Assembly: GCA_014084085.1 (NCBI GenBank)
Contig: NPFB01000109.1
Location: forward strand, 206,648-238,968
Direction of reading: 5' to 3'
DNA length: 32,321 nucleotides
Source of the DNA: Hondaea fermentalgiana
Lineage: Eukaryota; Sar; Bigyra; Thraustochytrida; Thraustochytriidae
Numbering within the stretch: position 1 is the stretch's first letter; every line of letters begins with the position of its first letter. Positions 4,622-30,321 of this stretch are shown in pieces. The notes under the pieces were generated by a model. That model saw nothing but the letters and a program-made list of their open reading frames with translations. It made no database searches and was not told the DNA's origin. A program made the translations under genes and the position numbers.

Positions 4622-7333
4622 TTACTGTTGCGCTGGCCGCACTCGATTCCTCTGCCGCATCCATCGTGGCCTCGTTGATAGGATTCGAGAAGCCGCCTCT
4701 TCAGCTTCCGCTACAGCAGGTCCAACATGCTTCATTGTGGAGGCACCGACTGATGCAAGATAGTTCAGATGCGAGGAATCAAGAACTTGCCAAGCTGGTC
4801 TTCGCCCTTCTTGCCGGTCCGCTTCGCAGACAACAGGCCGTGCAGAAGCTTTCGTGGGATGCTTGAGGTCTCGATGCGCTTCCTCTCGCTCAGATCTGTC
4901 TGCATCAGAGCTATCGTCATCAAAGTCGAGCTCGTCGGGCCCGTCATCCTGATTCACGTCCACACGTTTGACACCATCGGCCTTGCTAGGATCATCTTTG
5001 CTACGATTGACATCAATCTTGCCATTGTTGTTTCTGTTCGCGCCTTCGGCCTCTCCGCTGCTGGCGCTCTCCGTGCCACCATCGTCGAGCTTGCCACTTG
5101 CACTCGCACTTTCACTTGCACTCGCACTCGCACTTTCACTTTCACTTGCACTCGGCTCAAGACGAGCATTGACGGGTGCCCGCGAAAGATCCCACGATTC
5201 CATCCAGCGCGATGCGGAAGTCTTTGCAGACCCAAGCGAAATCTGAGGTTCCTGCTTAAACCTCCGCCCGGACAAGGTTTTACGAAGACGCTGCAAAAAG
5301 TCGCCAAGTGCGAGAGGTTCGTCGCTTGCACGCATCGTTTCTCGCACTCCCCACGTTGTTGCGCCGATAGGCCGCCCGTCAATGTTGGCGTCCGCTGCCG
5401 TTTGATCATCTCGACAACCGCTCAACACTACAAAGGAAGCTCCCTGGCGGGCTCGAACGCGGGATTCTCGACTGCGCGAAGCTCCGCGCGTAGCTTGCTT
5501 CGTGCGCGATGCCTTGAGAGCATCCATGCGTTGAACAAGCGCTTCACAGGGCGGAAGAAAACGAGAGCGGGTGTCCTGAGGTGACGTCGCTTCCGAGCTG
5601 CTTTGCTGGCCCCGACTTCGTGGAACGTCCAAAAGCTTTGCATCGCTCAAAGTACCACTATGACAGCAATCAAACACCACCGTTAGATCGACGCCCTTGG
5701 GGACTTGCTCAAAGAATGAAGAGCGGAGCTCATCGTCGGTAATGTAGGTGCTTGGATCGGCACCATTAAAATCTACAGGAATGAGCGTTTCATCGCGCCC
5801 ATCCTCCTCGTCCCCGTCCTCATCAGGGACCTGAGAACCGTGCCCAGAATAGTGCAAAAAGAGGCAGTCGCCAGCTTCGGCCCCCTCGAGAAGCCAGCGC
5901 AGGCCCATGCGGATATTGCGCGCTGTCGGAAGATCGTCTTTGCGTGCTCGCACCTCGTCCGTCAATACACGCACTGTCTCCGTCTTAAATTCTTGCTGCA
6001 TCATAGACTGCATCTCACGAACGTCATTGTGGCACCCGTGCAGCTCATTTTCTCCTTGGCCAACATAGTTGATTCCAATCAAGAGGGCTTTTCGCTTACC
6101 GCGTGCCGATGGTGTGCCAGTGGACGTTTGGTCTTCAACGCTGTACGCTGGCTCAAAGCCCACACGAAGGTGCAGCTCTCCACTCGGCTCGACGCCATTC
6201 TGACAATCCCAGAGCTTTATCACTTTTGCGATGCCATTCTTATCATCTCCCGTGCCGCTCTTGGTCGCGGGTTCCGATCCCTCGAGATTCGCGGCCTCGA
6301 CGGCGCGCACGATGGCGTCCTTGACGTCAACCCAGGCCCGGCCCATGGGTCGATTTCTGCGCAACTTCATCTCATCGAAAATTGTGACACGTAGCCCAAG
6401 TCCAAGCCCCTGTGCTGCTGCTTCTGCGTTGTCCAGGCCAGGATACGCGATCATAAGCTGAGCAGCATCTGGATTCTTGCTTCCTTCGGCGATGGCGACT
6501 TGATCCCAATTCGGCTCGCGTCCACCATCCACGTGCGTGTCGCTGCGCGCAAGGGTGCCCCAAGGATGAAGCTCGGCCAGTACAAACGGGTCTTCCACGC
6601 CCAGCGTCGCAACGCGGCGAAGACCCACAGCACGCTGGACGGACACATGAAGCGTTCCACACATTGTCAACGGTGACCAGGGCTCGAAGCAAACCTCAAA
6701 GTTGACGGTACCATTGCCCTCTTCGAGCGTGCATGACGCAGAGGCAAAGACCGACGCCTGAGACAAGATCACCTCCAAATCCATCATGCCCATGCCAATT
6801 TCTCGATCACGTCCTGATTTCTCGCTGTCCATGACGCGTACAAACAACCGTATCGGGGATTTGCTCGGCCCTTTCGAAGTTCGCGGATCTCGACCTGGAT
6901 AGCGAAAATACATGCAATTATCTCGCCCCCAGGTGTCTACGTCATTGTCCTTCCAGCTCACGTCCGTTCCACCGTGGTCCATGGTCCGTGTCCTGCGCCT
7001 TTTGCTGGCGCCAATGCACAGCTTCGCAAGTGCTGCATCGGAGAGAGAGACGAGATCACGATCTTGCCCAAAGAGTTTTTCGGTGAACCCATGCACGAGC
7101 GTCTCTTTGCGCCTCTGCGCCTCTAGCGCCAGCTCGCTGGTGCTGGCCAGCACGATCGCCGTCTCCACATACGGATCCTGCTCGCCAACGATAAATCGAG
7201 CGTGCTGCACATTGCGCAGCCCCTTGCATTCGCGCACCCTGACAATGAGTCTTCCTGGCAGCGCCCACGGCACCGCCGCCTTTACCGCCCGGGGTTCCGC
7301 GGTCCTTTCGGGTGCGCTCTTTCCTTTGCACAT
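4622..7333 (-). CDS. C2-C2-metacaspase (type I-like, about 903 aa)
   Basis: A clan CD cysteine protease (peptidase C14, metacaspase) behind two C2-type domains. Metacaspases cleave after Arg/Lys, are commonly calcium-dependent and act in stress and cell-death responses. Numbered from the ATG at 7333: C2-like regions at about 26-219 and 225-399 (PGRLIVRV, EQDPYVE; GTLHVSVQ, VEDPFVLAEL), protease from about 415 (KRKALLIGINY), HYSGHGS with catalytic His498, FDCCHSG with catalytic Cys557, LSGCRDDQ near 638. The tail (about 720-903) is low-complexity Ser/Glu/Ala followed by acidic and basic stretches. The frame stays open upstream to TTG at 7486, with in-frame ATGs at 7459 and 7429. I chose 7333 because C2 similarity starts shortly after it and it leaves 198 bp to the divergent neighbour. 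C2 domains suggest calcium-dependent membrane recruitment (inference). Confidence 0.92.
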   Translation of the reverse strand: MCKGKSAPERTAEPRAVKAAVPWALPGRLIVRVRECKGLRNVQHARFIVGEQDPYVETAIVLASTSELALEAQRRKETLVHGFTEKLFGQDRDLVSLSDAALAKLCIGASKRRRTRTMDHGGTDVSWKDNDVDTWGRDNCMYFRYPGRDPRTSKGPSKSPIRLFVRVMDSEKSGRDREIGMGMMDLEVILSQASVFASASCTLEEGNGTVNFEVCFEPWSPLTMCGTLHVSVQRAVGLRRVATLGVEDPFVLAELHPWGTLARSDTHVDGGREPNWDQVAIAEGSKNPDAAQLMIAYPGLDNAEAAAQGLGLGLRVTIFDEMKLRRNRPMGRAWVDVKDAIVRAVEAANLEGSEPATKSGTGDDKNGIAKVIKLWDCQNGVEPSGELHLRVGFEPAYSVEDQTSTGTPSARGKRKALLIGINYVGQGENELHGCHNDVREMQSMMQQEFKTETVRVLTDEVRARKDDLPTARNIRMGLRWLLEGAEAGDCLFLHYSGHGSQVPDEDGDEEDGRDETLIPVDFNGADPSTYITDDELRSSFFEQVPKGVDLTVVFDCCHSGTLSDAKLLDVPRSRGQQSSSEATSPQDTRSRFLPPCEALVQRMDALKASRTKQATRGASRSRESRVRARQGASFVVLSGCRDDQTAADANIDGRPIGATTWGVRETMRASDEPLALGDFLQRLRKTLSGRRFKQEPQISLGSAKTSASRWMESWDLSRAPVNARLEPSASESESASASASESASASGKLDDGGTESASSGEAEGANRNNNGKIDVNRSKDDPSKADGVKRVDVNQDDGPDELDFDDDSSDADRSEREEAHRDLKHPTKASARPVVCEADRQEGRRPAWQVLDSSHLNYLASVGASTMKHVGPAVAEAEEAASRILSTRPRWMRQRNRVRPAQQ
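5098..5157 (-). repeat. Ser/Ala/Glu hexanucleotide-type repeat inside the metacaspase tail
   Basis: CACTCG/CACTTG/CACTTTCA units encode alternating Ser-Ala and Ser-Glu on the minus strand. This is a low-complexity linker between the protease domain and the acidic C-terminus. Confidence 0.8.
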
Positions 7334-7531
7334 GGCGATTAGGATGATGCTGCATTGCTCAGCTCGTCGGAAACATGATGACGATCGTGAGACGGTTGGT
7401 ACACACCGTTCCGGTACACACCAAAGCATTCCGCTTCTTACCTCCTTGCGGAGATCCATGCCGAGCCACCGGGCGCGCGCGCGCAAGCTTGATAGTCAGC
7501 CACACAGCGAGGTAGCTGTTGCGCGCCGCGC

Positions 7532-8962: not shown

Positions 8963-9973
8963 TCAAGTAAGCAGTGTGTGTTGATCTTGCGGAGCGAGTG
9001 TGGGTCGAGGCGTCTGCGCGCGCATACGAAGGCAAAGCTGCACCGCTTTTACAGCAGCATCCATGAGCGCAACGACTTCCATGGGCGAGGCTGTTGGGCT
9101 CACCGTGTACAGATTTGGCGCTAACACGATGCCGAGAGCCTTGATACTCATGCGATTGATGGTCTCGTATTGAGCTGTGTCGGCAAGCAGGTCGAGCAGC
9201 CAGAGAAAGACGGACTGATTGGGCTCTGGGAGACGTCGTAAGAGCTCTTCTGAAGCTTGTTCGTCGTTGTCAGTTCGTGCTGCGACTGACACAATGAGGT
9301 CTCGGGGCAGACATTGCAATAGAGGCTCGGGGAGTGCACGGAACCATTCTTTGATGAGCGCAGCCATGCACGTAGCATCGGTGCTCGAGACACAGCCTCT
9401 AAACTGGCCCGCGTCGAGTTGCGTCTTGTAGTGCAGTTGGGTGGACTTGTTGGCTGAGACGCGAAAGACGCCTTCGTGACGAAGACCACCATTATCGATA
9501 AGCTCACGCCTGAGCAGCACGAGCACTGCAGGTATGCGAGCTGCGTAGCCTTCCACTTCCACGCGCGGCGCGCTTCGCAAGGGAATGCCGAATTGTCTGT
9601 TGATGAGGGTCGTCTGCTGATTCCATCGGGTGGGAAGGCCGGCAAAGGTGACCGAGGTGGTGTCAAAGGTTGCATGAAAGTTGTGCCGGAAATTGGTGGG
9701 ACCTGATATTTCCACGCATCGGGGAATCTCGGCGCTGTTGGCTTCGCTGAGGCCCATTACGCGACGCCAAAGGGAGCCTTTGGATCTCTTGATGCGCCGT
9801 GCATCGCGACGCAGCCGAGGTCGTGGCGGGATTTCTTTTTCTTGATTGGAGGTGTTTGCCGCTCGCAGGGCTGTTCGCTCGAGCGAGCTTCGTCTTGAAC
9901 GCACTGTGGCTGGTCCTAGGATGACATCATGCTGTTCTCGATCGGGTGCTGCGCGAAGTGGTTCGAGTGTCAT
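8963..9973 (-). CDS. CRIB-RhoGAP, Rho/Rac-type GTPase-activating protein (336 aa)
   Basis: A GTPase-activating protein expected to stimulate GTP hydrolysis by Rho/Rac/Rop-type GTPases. Numbered from the ATG at 9973: a basic N-terminal region, a CRIB (p21-binding) motif at about 88-117 (ISGPTNFRHNFH ... FAGLPTRW), then a RhoGAP domain at about 128-320, with FGIPL at its start and the catalytic arginine finger in GVFRVS (Arg171). KEWFRALPEPL and NRMSIKALGIVLAPNL are further RhoGAP blocks. CRIB directly before RhoGAP is the order known from plant RopGAPs, where CRIB helps bind the active GTPase. The frame stays open upstream to a GTG at 10003, but 9973 is the first ATG. Confidence 0.95.
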   Translation of the reverse strand: MTLEPLRAAPDREQHDVILGPATVRSRRSSLERTALRAANTSNQEKEIPPRPRLRRDARRIKRSKGSLWRRVMGLSEANSAEIPRCVEISGPTNFRHNFHATFDTTSVTFAGLPTRWNQQTTLINRQFGIPLRSAPRVEVEGYAARIPAVLVLLRRELIDNGGLRHEGVFRVSANKSTQLHYKTQLDAGQFRGCVSSTDATCMAALIKEWFRALPEPLLQCLPRDLIVSVAARTDNDEQASEELLRRLPEPNQSVFLWLLDLLADTAQYETINRMSIKALGIVLAPNLYTVSPTASPMEVVALMDAAVKAVQLCLRMRAQTPRPTLAPQDQHTLLT

Positions 9974-21257: not shown

Positions 21258-22568
21258 TCATGAAGAAGAGAGAATGAGCATTTTGCCTTTGAGGGCAGGC
21301 CAGAGGTCGAGCTGGTTGTTACTCGCGATCCAGTCAGAGGTTCGCGCGACAACAAGACGACGACTCATACCATGCTGCGCGATGATAAAGTCGCATTCTT
21401 GGATGGACGTATCCTCACGAACAACTTCACCCGCCGCCAGTGAGGCGTCCTGAGATGCACTGCCAACGACGAGCGCATAGTGAGCACTTTTACCGTGGCG
21501 TTCCTCGGGCGCCGAGCCGGCTCCACGATCATAGGGAAGAATCGCCACGTGAGATGGCGAAATAGAGGCAGCAAGCGCCTCTACAGAGATGGCGACGACC
21601 TTGGCGCTGAGGCCAGACACACTTTGAGCAAGCGAAGCAAGGTCGTCAATCTTGTACAATTCGCCATCCGTAGAATAGCCACGCTGCTGCGCCTCTTGCA
21701 AGAGCGATGGCGCTCCTGGCGCGAGCGCAGCTCCACAAAGGTAGTGGCGCGCCATACGTAGCGCCGCAAGGCCACACGAGGGTCCAACCTGGCGATGAAG
21801 CGGTACATTGAGGAGGGCAAGGTGAAAACCTGTGGCCTCGGCCGCAAAATGACGCAGGTCTGCGCAGACCTCGGCTTCGATGGCATCCGCGTCGAGGATC
21901 TCGGCCGGGAGATCCTCGATGAGGCGCTTCCGCATCCACACCACGTTTTCGGCGTCAGCAGATTCGTGGTCGTAGTCTGGTACCGTCGACGATTGCCCCG
22001 TGTCTTGCTCTGCGTTCCTGGCACGCATTTTGGCGAGCATGCGCTCGAGAGCAGAGACTTGATTCTCTGCTAAATTGTCCAGAATGGGCCGGGCCACTGT
22101 GACACTCTCGCAGCACAGATAGCCGCACTTTGCGTAAAAGCCTTGCGCCGTGGATGTCCAGAGATAGACGTAGGTGTACCCGAGACTTTCGGCCTGATCA
22201 TGAATGCCATTCATGAGCTGGCGACCCAAGCCGCTGCCCCGAAGCGTCTCACTGATGACAACAGAAGTCAGGGCGCATGCTGGACCTTCGCCCTTGTCAG
22301 CGACCGCCTGGAGCTGCGCAAAGCCTACACAGTGCTCATTATCCGCGCTGTTATCCTCTTTGCTGTTGTCGTGCACCTGCACGAGCCCGAGAAAAACGCT
22401 GCCAGCTTCTTGCTGTTCCCGTAATCGTTGCGCTCTCCGCGCGAGACTCCCGCCCGCAGGCCACTCGGCGTGCAACAGCGCGCAGGCCTCGTCAACGAGC
22501 CGTCGCGCCCGGCCCGTTGTGGCGCTCGGATCGAGAACGGTGGTGAAGGGTGATGATGATGATGCCAT
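21258..22568 (-). CDS. NAA80-like acetyltransferase fused to ACTMAP-like actin maturation protease (436 aa)
   Basis: One uninterrupted frame with two enzyme domains. Residues about 22-160 plus 208-216 are GNAT: ACALLHAEWP matches the human NAA80 start region (CADLINDQWP), VVISETLRGSGLGRQLM carries the acetyl-CoA loop Arg110-Gly115, YAKCGY follows, and VVWMRKRL matches the terminal FWM strand of NAA80. Residues about 240-436 match ACTMAP (C19orf54): VGPSCGLAALRMA with nucleophile Cys265, QRGYSTDGELYKIDDL, VAILPYD, GKSAHYALVVG with His363, IIAQHG, and SDWIASNNQL. In animals ACTMAP trims the acetylated actin N-terminus and NAA80 re-acetylates it. The proline-rich profilin-binding loop of human NAA80 is absent; a helical linker (165-205) replaces it. 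ATG at 22568; no intron needed. Substrate is inferred, not shown. Confidence 0.92.
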   Translation of the reverse strand: MASSSSPFTTVLDPSATTGRARRLVDEACALLHAEWPAGGSLARRAQRLREQQEAGSVFLGLVQVHDNSKEDNSADNEHCVGFAQLQAVADKGEGPACALTSVVISETLRGSGLGRQLMNGIHDQAESLGYTYVYLWTSTAQGFYAKCGYLCCESVTVARPILDNLAENQVSALERMLAKMRARNAEQDTGQSSTVPDYDHESADAENVVWMRKRLIEDLPAEILDADAIEAEVCADLRHFAAEATGFHLALLNVPLHRQVGPSCGLAALRMARHYLCGAALAPGAPSLLQEAQQRGYSTDGELYKIDDLASLAQSVSGLSAKVVAISVEALAASISPSHVAILPYDRGAGSAPEERHGKSAHYALVVGSASQDASLAAGEVVREDTSIQECDFIIAQHGMSRRLVVARTSDWIASNNQLDLWPALKGKMLILSSS

Positions 22569-24820: not shown

Positions 24821-27800
24821 TCATTCAAATGTAAAGTCGCAGCCAACAATATCCGGCGTGAGAAGTGGGCGTAATCTTTCTTGCACGATGGCACGTACAC
24901 CTGAGTCTTTGGTTTTGTTTGCCATGTACTCACGAAGACGCTGCGCTCGAAGCCGAGTCCAAGCTTGCTGCACCACGTGTTTGCTCTCAAAATAGGGATC
25001 TTTGCCAGGAGGCTTTGATTTGCATGTTGCAACGTGCTTATGACAGGCGCCTGAGTCGTCGCTTGCATATTGCAGACACCACGCGCAAAAGTGGCACGAG
25101 CAAGTACTACATTCGAGAGCACAGCAGCCATCAAAATCAGCAAAGACCGCCGAACAACGGGGGCATGAGACATTCAAGATCTCGTTATGGATGTCGTGGA
25201 TGTGATTCTGCGTTGTCGGGTTCACTCCATGTTCACGGAGCGCTGCGTCGACGCGGTCACGGAGCTGGCGGTCTTGCTCGGCTGCAACGTCTCGCTCAAA
25301 TTGTTCACGAACGACGTTAAGCAGAACTGCAAAGTCCGCCTCTGGAACCGCGGATGCAATGGCCCGTCCAGAGATAACAAGATCACAATTTGGCGCAACA
25401 CAGCACATGCTCCCGTTCCGCAGTATTTTGACATGCGATTGAACCTGAGTAGCAGCGCGTACCGACATCCTCAAGCAGTTGTCACACGTAAAGTGACCAT
25501 CATCGCAGGAGACGCCCTCACTGATTGGGTAGACGTCGAGACAAATGGCACAAGAGACCCTCTTCATGGGCTCAATCTGGAATGCTTCGTGACGCAAGGC
25601 CTCAAGCGCACTGGGTCGCTGTGCTGGATTTGCAGACTGCAGAGACGCAACGAGTACCTGAATCGCGTCAGATGCCTCTGAGCCGTCAAAGAGCTCCGCG
25701 AGCACCACACCGATAGAGAACATGTCCACGGCAGGCTCAACCTTGTCAACATTCCCGTTGCGGATCTCGGGGGCCACGTACTTGATGACCGCTTGCTGCG
25801 TCAATGCCTTGTCGTGCGCTTGTGCACCATCAAAGTCAAGAACAGGTAAATGGTCTGGGTCGAGAAAGACATTCGCTGGCTTGATGTCGCAGTGCACGAA
25901 ACCTTGCGAGTGCAAATCGTGAAGGCCGGATAGAAGACAGGCAGCGATGCGCCTGCGCGTCGTCACGTCCGCATCCGCATTATCACGCATCCAGGCGGCC
26001 AAATCTCCACCTGAATAGTAGGGCATGACAACGCAACCATACCGGACATCCTGCATAAAGGTGCTCTCGATGCGAACGAGATAGGCCGAGCGCATTTTGG
26101 CGAGGGCTATTACTTGGCGATAAAAGCGGCTGCTCCACTCTTCGTCGGTGAGATGATAGGTCCTGAGAGCGAGCTCGCGGCCATCGGGGCTGCGGACTTT
26201 CTGAACAAGCTTGCCAGGCTTTGATGCGAGCTCGGTGAGTGTTGTAAAGCTCTCTCGCTCAACATGGCTGGGACAAAGGCCGGCCTTTGACAACTCCAGA
26301 GGCACCCCATTGCTTATTCCGATACGATCCAGCCATTCTTGATCTTGGAGCAGCTCAGGGTAGTGTGTCTCCGCGTGGTGCAGCACATGAGCGCGCTCCT
26401 TGATCAGACAGCTGCCTTGCCTGTAGACACTGCCGATCTTTGCAAGTTCTCTCTCGAGCTCCGGAAGTCTGGTTTGAGCATTGACATCACCGTGGTCTGC
26501 ATTCTCTGTAGCATCCTCGAGGTCCCGAGCGATCCTTTTGCGCTTCTTTCGAGAGTCACGAAGGTTCTTGACTAGCAATTCTACACGGTCCGTGACTGGC
26601 GCCTTGAGCCCTGGCTCGAGGCTTGAAAGAAGACTTTGAAGGTACTCGATGGTATTTTCCGCGCGAGACATCTTGTCCATAACGGTCTGCTCGTAAAATG
26701 ATAAAGTCAGAGATACCACTTGCTGAATACACTTTCGAGATGCGGTTTTCATAGGGTTTTCCCCCAACAAAACCTCAAGCTCGAACCAGAATGCCATCTC
26801 CATCGCTTGAGTGCTACCTTGGAGCGTTGATGCTTGCTCTGGATGCGTACCAGTTGTGGGCATGCTTGCTCGGCAAGCACTCAGCGCACGGATGGAGGCA
26901 AATGTGCGTTCGCGGGCTGACGAAGTGTTGTGTAGTGTCTCCCATTCTGTGAGTGCTTTCAGCGCAGCTTCTGTTGCTTTTTGTACCTCTTTAAAGGTGA
27001 TTGAGGCAGGTCGTATCCCACAATTGACCGGCTCACACAGGATCTCTTTCTGTAGGGTGCGATACGTATCTACAATGCGTTTAACTTCGGAACTTCTTCT
27101 GAGTTCGTCAATGAGGCCTTTGATGTCATCCGCAAGAACCTCGCGAGTGGAGTCGATAAGGCTCTTTCGAGACGCATCTCGCTTTGCAGCATTTGTTGGC
27201 GCGGCAGCCATCGCCGCCTGGAGTTCTTGGAACTCTGCTGCCTTTTCACGGATGTTTGCCTGGTCCTTGTCAAAGTTCATCAGAGCTTCAAGTGTGCGAC
27301 TGAGTACAAGATGCTGGGTCAAAGCAGGACGCAGCCATTTGTGGAAAACGGGTTTACCGTTATCGCGCAGTTCACGCGCGAATGCGACCGTTGCAGCGAG
27401 CGCCTCGAGACCCGAATGCCTTTCGCTTGCTCCAAACGCTTCCACGAAGAGTTCCCGGCCCTGTACACTGGCGATACCAAGCTGCGCAATACGAGTGAAA
27501 CTGAGACGACGAGCCTCGTTCATCGTTTGCACACGTTCATCCAAAAGCTCGACAACCATCTCTCGCAAAGTTTTGATCTGAAGCTGCGCAAGCGGTAGCG
27601 ATTGTAGAAAAGAAAGCAGGGTGGGCAGCTCCTTGCGATTGTCAGTGGAGCGTTGATGTTCGTCGCTGGCAAAGATGTCTCGCCTATCGATGTGTGGAAC
27701 CATTTCTTGCGTCCGGGATGGCAACGGTACAGTGTTTTGCTGCTGCTGCTGCTGCTGCTGCTGATCCCGTGTCCCCTCCAACATCGTCACGAACTCCAGG

Positions 27801-29781
27801 AACGCGACGGCGTCGGCGCGTGAATAGTACTTGGCGTTTGCCAGCGCGTCCCGCCCTTTCTTATTCTTCAAATGCAGATCGGCGCCCGCCACGTAGCAAA
27901 GCTTGAGGCAGCGCAGGAGACCCTTCTCGGTGTGATGCGATTCCGCAGGCTCTTGACATGCCAGCATGAGCGCAGTCCATCCATCGTTGGCCTGCAGGTC
28001 GAGATTGGCGCCGCGCTCGTCATCAAGGAGCAACTGAGCCGTGCCGGGTTGGTCGAAGCGACACGCGAGCATGAGCGCCGTCCATCCTTCCTTTTCCTGC
28101 AAGTAGAGGTTGGCGCCGCGCTCGATGAGCAACTGGGCCGTGCCGGGCTGGTCGTTACGGCATGCGAGTGAGAGTGCGGCCCACCGATCGTTGTCCTGTA
28201 AATTGAGATTGGCGCCGCTGTCGATGAGCAAATGGGCCGTCTCAGGCTGGCCATGTTCGCACGCAAACATAAGCGCGGTCACTCCCTTGTTGTTCTGCAG
28301 ATCAAGGTTGACGCCGCGCTCGATGAGCAATTGGGCCGCCTTGGGCTGGCCGTAGCGGCAGGCGAACATGAGTGCGGTCCACCGCTTGTTGTTCTGCAGT
28401 TCAAGCTTGGCACCACGCTCAATGAGCAACTGTGCCGTTTCGGGCTGCTTGTAGCGGCAGGCAAACATGAGCGCGGTCCATCGTTTGTTGTTCTGCAGGT
28501 CAAGCTTGGCGCCGCCCTCAATAAGCAACTGCACCGTCTCAGGCTGCTTGTAGCGGCACGCGAGCATGAGTGCGGTGTTTCTATCGTCATTCTGCAGGTC
28601 GAGATTGGCGCCGCTGTCAATGAGCAGCTGGGCCGTCTCAGACTGGCTATGCTCACACGTAAACATGAGCGCGGTCCCTCCGTTGTTGTCCTGCAGATCA
28701 AGGTTGGCGCCGCGCTCGATGAGCAGCTGCGCCGTCTCGGGCTGCTTGTAGCGGCACGCGAACATGAGCGCGGTGCTTTTATCGTCATTCTGCAGGTCGA
28801 GGTTGGCGCCGTGCTCGGTAAGTAATTGAGCCGTGTCGGGCTGGTCGTAGCGGCACGCAAACATGAGCGCGGTCCATCCGTTGTGTAGCTGCAGGTCGAG
28901 GTTGACGCCGCGCTCGATGAGCAACTGCGCCGTCTCGGGCTGCTTGTAGCGGCACGCGAGCATGAGCGCGGTGTTTTTATCGTCATTCTGCAGGTCGAGG
29001 TTGGTGCCGCGCTCGGTAAGTAATTGGGCCGTGTCGGGCTGGTCGTAGCGGCACGCAAGCATGAGCGCGGTCCATCCGTCGGGTAGCTGCAGGTCGAGTT
29101 GACGCCGCGCTCGATAAGCAACTTGGCCGTGCTAGGCTGGTCGTGGCGACAAGCGAACATGAGCGCAGTCCATCCAATTCCGTTCTGCAGGTCAAGGTTG
29201 GCACCGCGCTCGATGAGCAGCTGGGCCGTCTTGGGCTGCCCGCGCCAGCAAGCGAGCATGAGCGCGGTGTTTTCATCGTCGTTCAGCAGGTCGAGGTTGG
29301 CGTTGCGTTTGATGAGCAACTGGGCCGTGTCGGGCTGGCCGTGGTAGCAAGCGAGCATGAGCGCGGTATCTCCATTGTTGTTCTGCAGGTCGAGGTTGGC
29401 ACCGCGTTCGGTAAGCGACTGGGCCGTGTCGGGCTGCTCGAAGCGGCACGCGAGCATAAGCGCGGTGTCTTCATTATTGTTCTGCAGGTCGAGGTTGGCG
29501 CCACGCTCGGCAAGCAACTGGGCCGTGTCGGGCTGCTCGTAGCGGCACGCGAGCATGAGCGCGGTGTCTCCATTGTTGTTCTGCAGGTCGAGGTTGGCGC
29601 CACGCTCGATGAGCCACCGCGCGATAACGGGCTGCCCCCCGGATTCTTCGCAGAGTGTCCACATGAGCGGAGTAGATTTCGAAGTCGTCACCGCCTCGTT
29701 AAGCAGGGAGGGCTCGTCCTGCACGGCGCGCTGCACGCCGGCGACGTCGCCGTCCCTGATGAGGTTGAACATGCTCACCAT
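24821..29781 (-). CDS. Ankyrin-array / degenerate kinase / RBR-type E3 ligase, with one frameshift (about 1653 aa if bridged)
   Basis: Starts MVSMFNLIRDGD at 29781. About 18 ankyrin repeats of 33 residues follow (TALMLACRYxQPxTAQLLIERGANLDLQ type), then poly-Gln (about residue 673), a long helical region and a kinase-like domain (about 1177-1400). RING1 follows (CAICLDVYP, SCDDGHFTCDNC, CCVAPNC). A second zinc module (CPRC, DGCCALEC, FCAWC, CHKHVATC) resembles the Rcat domain of RBR ubiquitin ligases, with Cys1553 (codon 25124-25126) at the active-site position. The kinase keeps HCDIKPAN (Asp1299) and APE, but has Arg1207 where the VAIK lysine is expected, Gln for the helix-C Glu, and DFD for DFG, so it may be a pseudokinase. 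A missing G near 29097, in ankyrin repeat 6, splits the frame. Expected role: target recognition by ankyrins and ubiquitin transfer (inference). Confidence 0.88.
27738..27763 (-). repeat. CTG/CAG trinucleotide run encoding poly-Gln
   Basis: It encodes about nine glutamines between the ankyrin array and the helical region of the ankyrin-RBR protein. Length polymorphism is likely. Confidence 0.9.
27840..29681 (-). repeat. Tandem 99-bp ankyrin-encoding repeat array (about 18 units)
   Basis: Units of 33 codons are very similar at DNA level, including third positions, with alternating subtypes (CRYDQPDT, CRYKQPET, CEHGQPET). Unit 17 carries two extra residues (DDERGAN). The last unit is degenerate, with a longer insertion. 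Near-identity suggests recent expansion or gene conversion, and also makes assembly errors possible. Confidence 0.95.
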
Positions 29782-29976
29782 CCTTGCGCGCGCGGGTCTT
29801 GCTCGAGGGCGGCGGTCGAGGTGGAAGCGGGACTGCTGGACGGGCTGGCTCGGCTGGGGGCGGGGCTGGAGCTGGCGTCTGCGCGCGGCACGTGCAGGGC
29901 GCGCGAAGAGGCGGGCGTTACCGAGATGCGCAGGACTGCCGCGTGTAGCGGTGTCAAGCTCTTCAGCGTTGGCGAA

Positions 29977-30321
29977 GCGGGTTTGCAAGCAGCCACGGCA
30001 GGTCGACCCCGGAAAATCAATGCCTCTCGGAGCGCGGCGCATTTCGTGACACTGCAGACGCAGACGGTCAGTGCTGCGCACCACAGCTCTACCCCCTCCC
30101 GACCACACGCTTCGCACCACAGCTCTCCGCCATGCTTCCACGCGTCGGAAAATACCCGATGTTGAGAGCGCTTTGACTGTGCCTTGAGAGCGCTTGTGGG
30201 AGCGGGTGCGCTGCGCTGCTGCTGCGAGGCGAGGCGCGACATTCTTCAGCCCGCCGCGCCGCGCGTCTTCGGTGTCGCCGCAGAGCTCTGGGGGGAGCGG
30301 CTGGGTCCAGCCAGGTTGGCG
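29977..30321. repeat. Upstream duplication, copy A
   Basis: Aligns with 30346-30700 at an offset of about 369 bp. Shared blocks include TCAATGCCTCTCGGA, CGTGACACTGCA, CACCACAG, CTGCTGCGAGGCG and CCGCCGCGCCGCGCGTCTT. It lies about 200 bp upstream of the ankyrin-RBR start codon. Confidence 0.85.

What the first reader, a model, noticed from the sequence alone, without database searches (positions are those of the whole stretch)
21258..22568. Single-protein actin N-terminal maturation enzyme: NAA80 acetyltransferase fused to ACTMAP protease
Seen: one 436-codon frame carries a GNAT domain whose start block, acetyl-CoA loop (RGSGLG) and terminal VWM strand match remembered NAA80 features, followed by a domain with ACTMAP blocks (VGPSCGLAAL, RGYSTDGELY, ILPYD, HYALVVG, IIAQHG). 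Known: in animals, ACTMAP and NAA80 are separate enzymes acting in sequence on the actin N-terminus. Inference: fusion implies a physically coupled trim-and-reacetylate reaction and independently supports a functional link (Rosetta-stone logic). The domain order (acetyltransferase first) is opposite to the reaction order, and the profilin-binding proline loop is missing. I do not know of a described fusion of this kind, but I could not search.
Basis: partly seen in the sequence, partly recalled or inferred. Interest (0 to 1): 0.9.

Follow-up and report, generated by a model that had tools for sequence, protein, structure and literature searches.

The report
Fused actin-trimming and re-acetylating enzyme
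A single-celled eukaryote carries, as one protein, the two enzymes that animals use separately to cut and then re-cap the front end of actin, and the same two-in-one protein occurs in other non-animal eukaryotes.

Summary
One uninterrupted 436-codon frame, on the minus strand (22568→21258), encodes an acetyltransferase domain followed by a papain-like protease domain. The N-half is closest to NAA80 among solved structures, by sequence profile (E 3e-20 and 7e-17, next 3e-6) and by fold (ranks 1-5); the nearest bacterial family, ArsN2, scores lower. The C-half is an ACTMAP domain: PF21646 at 80 bits, and alignment over the whole domain to human ACTMAP with Cys265 on catalytic Cys132. That human sequence was recalled, but agrees with five positions given in a paper. 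The architecture recurs: 18 two-domain proteins from several databases, including one from the haptophyte Prymnesium parvum and transcriptome-derived ones, keep Cys and His in 18 of 18. Trees of the two halves share their shallow groups, though deeper branching differs; one old fusion is compatible. The genome shows one ACTMAP-type locus, and Drosophila NAA80 finds only this place. Its conventional actin begins M-A-D-D-E, a class II-like start suited to trim-then-acetylate. Held papers call NAA80 animal-specific; no passage seen describes such a fusion, but the ACTMAP discovery paper was not readable. No activity or actin N-terminus was measured. It is a new architecture of two known enzymes outside animals.

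The parts
21258..22568 (-). Whole gene: 436 codons plus stop, single open frame; NAA80-like acetyltransferase fused to ACTMAP-like protease
21921..22553 (-). NAA80-like GNAT domain, residues 6-216 (span aligned to NAA80; residue 216 ends the aligned range at human residue 308)
22458..22463 (-). Trp36-Pro37, position of the actin-peptide-binding Trp of NAA80 (Dm W36 / Hs W105)
   Evidence: W in 15 of 18 fusions
22224..22241 (-). Acetyl-CoA loop RGSGLG, residues 110-115
   Evidence: R110 and G115 in 18 of 18
22155..22166 (-). YLWT strand, residues 135-138; W137 falls where Drosophila NAA80 has S124, which contacts the first Asp side chain (register read by me)
   Evidence: W in 17 of 18
21945..22106 (-). 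Mostly low-confidence beta6-beta7 region, residues 155-208, without the proline runs of vertebrate NAA80
21921..21938 (-). Basic junction motif WMRKRL, residues 211-216, last strand of the GNAT domain; R213 and R215 invariant
   Evidence: 18 of 18
21261..21914 (-). ACTMAP-like papain-fold protease half, residues 219-436
   Evidence: (pLDDT 91.8)
21774..21776 (-). Cys265, predicted nucleophile (human ACTMAP C132)
   Evidence: (18 of 18)
21480..21482 (-). His363, predicted catalytic base
   Evidence: (18 of 18)
21369..21377 (-). Gln398-His399-Gly400; His399 kept in most fusions where human ACTMAP (recalled) has Gln; possible third active-site residue
   Evidence: (H in 17 of 18); role inferred

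Best explanation
The gene encodes a bifunctional actin N-terminal maturase. Its C-terminal papain-like domain (Cys265/His363) removes the acetylated first residue of actin. For this organism's actin (MADDEVQ...), Met would be lost to methionine aminopeptidase, Ala acetylated by NatA, and Ac-Ala removed by the protease domain. The N-terminal NAA80-type domain then acetylates the exposed acidic end (DDEVQ...). Placing the protease right after NAA80's last strand keeps both active sites on one actin monomer, and may stand in for the proline-loop/profilin recruitment that vertebrate NAA80 uses. Shown here: the fusion, both family assignments, conservation of catalytic residues, its recurrence, and an actin with a suitable N-terminus. 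Inferred: activity, substrate, order of steps, coupling.
For: N-half: a profile of 9 fusions finds Drosophila NAA80 (E 3.2e-20) and human NAA80 (6.6e-17) above the other PDB matches (112 at E up to 1, 60 shown; third 3e-6). Single-sequence search gives the same two on top. Foldseek and VIA ranks 1-5 are all NAA80. The Drosophila NAA80 segment finds only this place in the genome, where 20 places match PF00583, this one included. A bacterial ArsN2-like GNAT scores 50 bits against 75 and 65 for the two NAA80 pieces. Actin-peptide Trp kept in 15 of 18. C-half: PF21646 in 18 of 18 fusions; a profile of 17 of 18 fusions matches recalled human ACTMAP over residues 109-345, E 1.1e-26, with C132 on C265. 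Papain-type fold predicted with pLDDT 91.8. 17 further fusions; half-trees share shallow groups. Only ACTMAP-type match in the genome at E up to 10. Conventional actin MADDEVQ, the class II pattern described in PMC11465159 section 6.
Against: No activity or actin N-terminal mass was measured. The Arg directly after WP in NAA80 (Dm R38) is not kept; an Arg near Dm R43 stands at column 44 in 12 of 18, with uncertain register; position S124 is Trp in 17 of 18, so the pocket differs from the animal one. P0018 has Phe at the Trp position. The best NCBIfam model is ArsN2 (2.3e-12, 46.7 bits, cut-off 125), matched by 11 of 11 fusions scanned; that library holds prokaryotic models, and Drosophila NAA80 itself also has ArsN2 on top (3.5e-7). 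The GNAT tree puts fusions and NAA80 in one neighbourhood with moderate support and two stray rows inside; a joint clade is not rejected (p 0.41) but not shown. Deeper branching of the two half-trees disagrees. The human ACTMAP sequence was recalled, not fetched. A second actin paralogue starts MHEGEAH and would not be processed this way.
Confidence: 0.77

Rival explanations
1. The fusion is a real NAA80/ACTMAP-derived enzyme, but its main substrates are other acidic N-termini and not actin, so it is a general trim-and-recap enzyme in these protists.
For: Substrate-pocket positions differ from animal NAA80 (W137 for S124, no WPR Arg). No substrate was measured.
Against: Actin is the only NAA80 substrate reported (PMC10318143 abstract). 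The organism's conventional actin has the required X-acidic start. The two families paired here share actin as known substrate, which is the reason for expecting it.
Confidence: 0.13
2. Convergent case: a eukaryotic copy of the bacterial GNAT plus DUF3335/C39 peptidase fusion (PF11814), unrelated to actin.
For: PMC10318531 (passages) reports DUF3335 papain-like domains often fused to GNAT domains. Fold neighbours of the protease half include C39 peptidases and a bacterial phytochelatin synthase. 3 of 18 fusions touch Peptidase_C39_2 weakly (best 0.0052) and 1 Peptidase_C39 (0.036). The GNAT half also resembles bacterial ArsN2.
Against: PF11814 is not listed for P0001 (limit E 10, although HMMER's filters drop most matches above 0.1), for any of the 18 fusions at E up to 0.1, or in this genome at E up to 0.001 (one control genome rang). 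No relative confirmed in the prokaryote genome collection by conserved-motif scans. PF21646 and NAA80 are the preferred matches. A bacterial GNAT-DUF3335 protein was not compared directly.
Confidence: 0.04
3. Only one of the two domains is catalytically active; the other serves as an actin-binding arm.
For: A possible third active-site residue departs from human ACTMAP (His399 for Gln, recalled); the NAA80 pocket is partly changed.
Against: Cys265 and His363 in 18 of 18, acetyl-CoA Arg110 and Gly115 in 18 of 18: both sets are under constraint.
Confidence: 0.05
4. Assembly or gene-model artefact joining two neighbouring genes.
For: Gene prediction alone could read through a boundary; no RNA data for this organism were available.
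Against: One uninterrupted frame; same order and junction in 17 other proteins from jgi, mmetsp, ena, eukprot, ncbi/uniref and lgn sources, at least two of them transcriptome-derived.
Confidence: 0.01

Closest known systems
NAA80 / NatH (actin N-terminal acetyltransferase; PDB 5wjd, 5wje, 6nas, 6nbe, 6nbw)
   Same: Best sequence-profile and fold match of the N-half; WP motif with the peptide-binding Trp; acetyl-CoA loop; the aligned range runs to human residue 308 (that this is NAA80's C-terminus is recalled)
   Different: Carries a protease domain after the last strand; no proline loop; WPR Arg lost; YLWT in place of YLST/HLTT; outside animals
ACTMAP / C19orf54 (actin maturation protease; Pfam PF21646)
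   Same: Whole protease domain aligns; catalytic Cys and the His kept; shared blocks (GPxCGL, GY-x3-GE, PYD, AH[YW], SNxQL)
   Different: Preceded by an acetyltransferase; His399 where human (recalled) has Gln; lacks a proline-rich N-terminal extension (the human one is recalled)
Bacterial GNAT + DUF3335 (PF11814) papain-like fusions (PMC10318531, passages)
   Same: An acetyltransferase and a papain-like domain in one protein
   Different: Different papain-like family; no PF11814 match found; not tied to actin
ArsN2 arsenic-resistance GNAT (NF040501)
   Same: Nearest bacterial GNAT model for the N-half, and for Drosophila NAA80 too
   Different: Far below the family's cut-off (46.7 against 125 bits); scores below NAA80 against the fusion profile

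Membership tests
NAA80 / NatH | Closer to NAA80 than to any other solved GNAT, by sequence and fold | tested here: met
NAA80 / NatH | Reciprocal match: animal NAA80 finds this locus among the genome's GNATs | tested here: met
   Drosophila segment gives one match at E up to 10 (3.1e-5), this locus, one candidate scored; 20 places match PF00583
NAA80 / NatH | One clade with animal NAA80 in a GNAT tree | tested here: inconclusive
   same neighbourhood (85/82) but two stray rows inside; joint clade not rejected, p-AU 0.41; 12 of 18 fusions used
NAA80 / NatH | Actin-peptide-binding residues W105, R107, R112 (human numbering) | tested here: inconclusive
   Trp kept in 15 of 18; WPR Arg not kept; one downstream Arg in 12 of 18 with unsure register
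NAA80 / NatH | Proline-rich beta6-beta7 loop binding profilin (vertebrate feature; insects lack it, so not defining for the family) | tested here: not met
   no run of four Pro in the loop of any of 18
NAA80 / NatH | Acetylates acidic actin N-termini | not testable with these tools
   needs enzyme assay
ACTMAP | PF21646 above curated cut-off | tested here: met
   80.3 bits against 27; matched at E up to 0.1 in 18 of 18 fusions
ACTMAP | Homology over the whole catalytic domain with nucleophile aligned to human C132 | tested here: met
   residues 109-345, E 1.1e-26; human sequence recalled, agreeing with C119, C132, C271 and the bounds of tryptic peptide 115-154 in PMC13367750 (passages)
ACTMAP | Removes Ac-Met/Ac-Cys from actin | not testable with these tools
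   needs enzyme assay
Bacterial GNAT-DUF3335 fusion | PF11814 domain | tested here: not met
   not listed (limit E 10; E up to 0.1, 18 proteins) or (own genome, E up to 0.001)
ArsN2 (NF040501) | Score over the curated cut-off of 125 bits | tested here: not met
   46.7 bits for P0001; own genome 49 bits

The most novel reading that the evidence does not exclude
A single-polypeptide actin maturase arose early in eukaryotes and persists in several non-animal lineages. Actin N-terminal trimming and re-acetylation is then an old eukaryotic process, not an animal one, and animals carry the two activities as separate proteins, with profilin docking replacing the covalent link.
Probability: 0.4. Interest if true: 0.85.

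Novelty: new variant of a known kind. Interest (0 to 1): 0.76.

Why it matters
[quoted passage not shown] PMC10318143 'animal actin-specific', passages). A fused NAA80-ACTMAP in protists extends both enzymes beyond animals, gives sequence evidence, independent of cell biology, that the two act on the same substrate, and offers one recombinant protein in which trimming and re-acetylation could be tested together. It also predicts mature actin N-termini for many protists.

Tried and rejected
Bacterial or viral relatives: none confirmed in viral contigs or genome contigs; on plasmids one weak match (E 1e-3) to the GNAT part only, which proved to be an ArsN2-like gene in the neighbourhood of arsC. 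ArsN2 as a rival family for the N-half: it is the best NCBIfam model for the fusions but also for Drosophila NAA80, and the one ArsN2-like protein tested scores below both NAA80 pieces; it is only 96 aa, so the comparison leans against it. The ACTMAP-half profile (7 of 11 fusions then known) found no PDB sequence at E up to 10, so ACTMAP's own fold could not be compared. Profilin (PF00235) was not detected in the own genome, but no control genome rang, so this says nothing. P0019 and P0020 match only PF21646 but are short and may be incomplete, so they are not counted as standalone. The bacterial-type promoter scan is uninformative for a eukaryote. I read some actin loci first on the wrong strand and corrected that.

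Literature: 9 searches. ACTMAP and NAA80 together occur in 3 held papers; searched for 'fused' and 'fusion', none gave a mention of a natural fusion. ACTMAP with actin occurs in 8; the 5 others were seen as listing only. Other listings showed no title or abstract start on such a fusion; I saw passages of PMC7864067, PMC10318531, PMC9692967, PMC7536088, PMC11853071 and PMC12219266. The founding papers (Haahr 2022, Goris 2018, Rebowski 2020) are not held, so a mention there cannot be excluded.

Full report
What is there. Position 21258..22568 holds one open frame of 436 codons on the minus strand. None of 20,000 shuffles of the same bases was open throughout. Pfam finds a GNAT domain (76-150) and ACTMAP-like_C (258-370), both well above cut-off.

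A result that pulls the other way. The best NCBIfam model for the N-half is bacterial ArsN2 (2.3e-12 for P0001, matched by 11 of 11 fusions scanned), a better E-value than the single-sequence NAA80 match, though far below its cut-off (46.7 of 125 bits). Drosophila NAA80 also has ArsN2 on top (3.5e-7), so ArsN2 seems to be the nearest bacterial family to both. Against the fusion profile with equal settings, Drosophila NAA80 scores 74.7 bits, human NAA80 65.3, an ArsN2-like plasmid protein (96 aa) 50.0, and the best of 19 other GNATs of this genome 20.1. NAA80 stays first, but the ArsN2 protein is short and is a single example.

Substrate pocket. PMC10318143 (passages) lists Drosophila W36, R38 and R43 (human W105, R107, R112) as key peptide contacts, and S124 for the first Asp side chain. 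In the 18 fusions the Trp is kept in 15 (one Phe, one Leu, one gap); the Arg right after WP is not kept; an Arg stands at column 44 in 12; the S124 position is Trp in 17 (register read by me). A basic motif, W-M-R-K-R-L, lies on the last strand (R213 and R215 in 18 of 18). I suggest, as inference only, that it supplies charge for the acidic actin end. No proline run lies in the loop of any of 18 (P0005 has one far upstream); insects lack it too (PMC7864067, passages).

C-half. The protease half folds alone with mean pLDDT 91.8 (alignment with 16 of the 18 fusions plus P0019, P0020 and the window fragment). Its fold neighbours are papain-like: a pseudomurein endoisopeptidase, bacterial phytochelatin synthase, C39 peptidases and staphopain. 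Cys265 begins a helix and His363 lies near the start of a strand, as in papain-like enzymes; both are present in 18 of 18, and His399 in 17 of 18. PDB holds no sequence relative at E up to 10. I recalled human ACTMAP from memory. It carries Cys at 119, 132 and 271 and Arg at 114 and 154, as PMC13367750 requires (C132 nucleophile, C119, C271, tryptic peptide 115-154; passages). A profile of 17 of 18 fusions matches it over 109-345 (E 1.1e-26 for 177,635 sequences), with C132 on C265 and Gln where the fusions have His399.

Distribution. Searches of about 5.8 billion proteins returned 17 further two-domain proteins (7, 3 more, 7 more) and two short PF21646-only pieces. All three searches scored only the roughly 8,000 candidates sharing most words, so the list is incomplete, and nothing listed was named as an animal ACTMAP or NAA80. 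All 18 match both domains and align in this order. One is named, Prymnesium parvum; P0002 comes from MMETSP transcripts (57% identical), P0004 from a Trinity transcriptome. The source names shown mention at most the acetyltransferase part. Separate trees of the two halves share shallow groups (P0001+P0002; P0003+P0004, near P0005 and P0006; P0007 and P0009-P0011; the group of P0008), with distance correlation 0.66, not reached in 2,000 permutations. Deeper branching differs: P0001+P0002 side with P0003-P0006 in the N-half tree (81/92) but not in the C-half tree (87/83), and P0015 moves; P0018 is a long branch in both. One old fusion is the simplest reading, not a proven one. No relative was confirmed in prokaryote genomes or viral contigs. 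The own genome shows one PF21646 match.

Substrate in this organism. The best of 17 actin-family matches is a conventional actin whose frame starts MADDEVQALVVDNGSG, with no Met upstream in that frame; its best PDB rows are mostly cytoplasmic actins. PMC11465159 section 6 describes class II actins: Met removed, second residue acetylated by NatA, that residue removed by ACTMAP, acidic end acetylated by NAA80. M-A-D-D-E fits this with Ala for Cys. A second actin, starting MHEGEAHAIVIDNGSG, does not.

Interpretation. A bifunctional actin N-terminal maturase is the best explanation (0.77). Family membership of the protease half is close to settled and that of the acetyltransferase half well supported; substrate and coupling are inferred. 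Rivals are given in their field.

Novelty. Held papers call NAA80 an animal enzyme (PMC9692967 passages; [quoted passage not shown] The 3 held papers naming both enzymes mention no natural fusion under 'fused' or 'fusion'. The ACTMAP discovery paper is not held. Actin trimming outside animals is not itself new: the reference list of PMC7536088 cites work of 1981 on N-terminal processing of Dictyostelium actin. I rate it a new variant: a new architecture and a new range for two known enzymes.

Noticed in passing
24821..30042 (-): Ankyrin-repeat/protein-kinase gene split over two overlapping frames (24821-29062 and 28279-30042); by eye the second frame turns from ankyrin to out-of-frame repeat text, suggesting an intron or frameshift near 29060.
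   Followed up: no
4622..7459 (-): Metacaspase (Peptidase_C14) preceded by a C2 domain, in one frame.
   Followed up: partly
8963..9973 (-): RhoGAP domain preceded by a P21-Rho-binding (PBD/CRIB) motif, a small combined regulator.
   Followed up: partly
L007 and L006 (G000:C79, about 43.7-47.5 kb): Two neighbouring divergent actin genes with long N-terminal extensions in frame with the actin domain; that of L007 looks repetitive and is partly masked as N.
   Followed up: no
L004 1501-2616: Second actin-like gene starting MHEGEAHAIVIDNGSG, an N-terminus that would not follow class I or II processing.
   Followed up: no
L011 (G000:C14): Actin-like domain preceded by a calponin-homology-like and SAM-like region in one frame (read by eye).
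   Followed up: no
21369..21377 (-): QHG block: His399 conserved in 17 of 18 fusions while human ACTMAP (recalled) has Gln at the aligned place; may be an altered third catalytic residue.
   Followed up: partly
22224..22463 (-): Drosophila NAA80 and the fusions both have bacterial ArsN2 as best NCBIfam model, a hint that NAA80 and ArsN2 may share an origin.
   Followed up: partly
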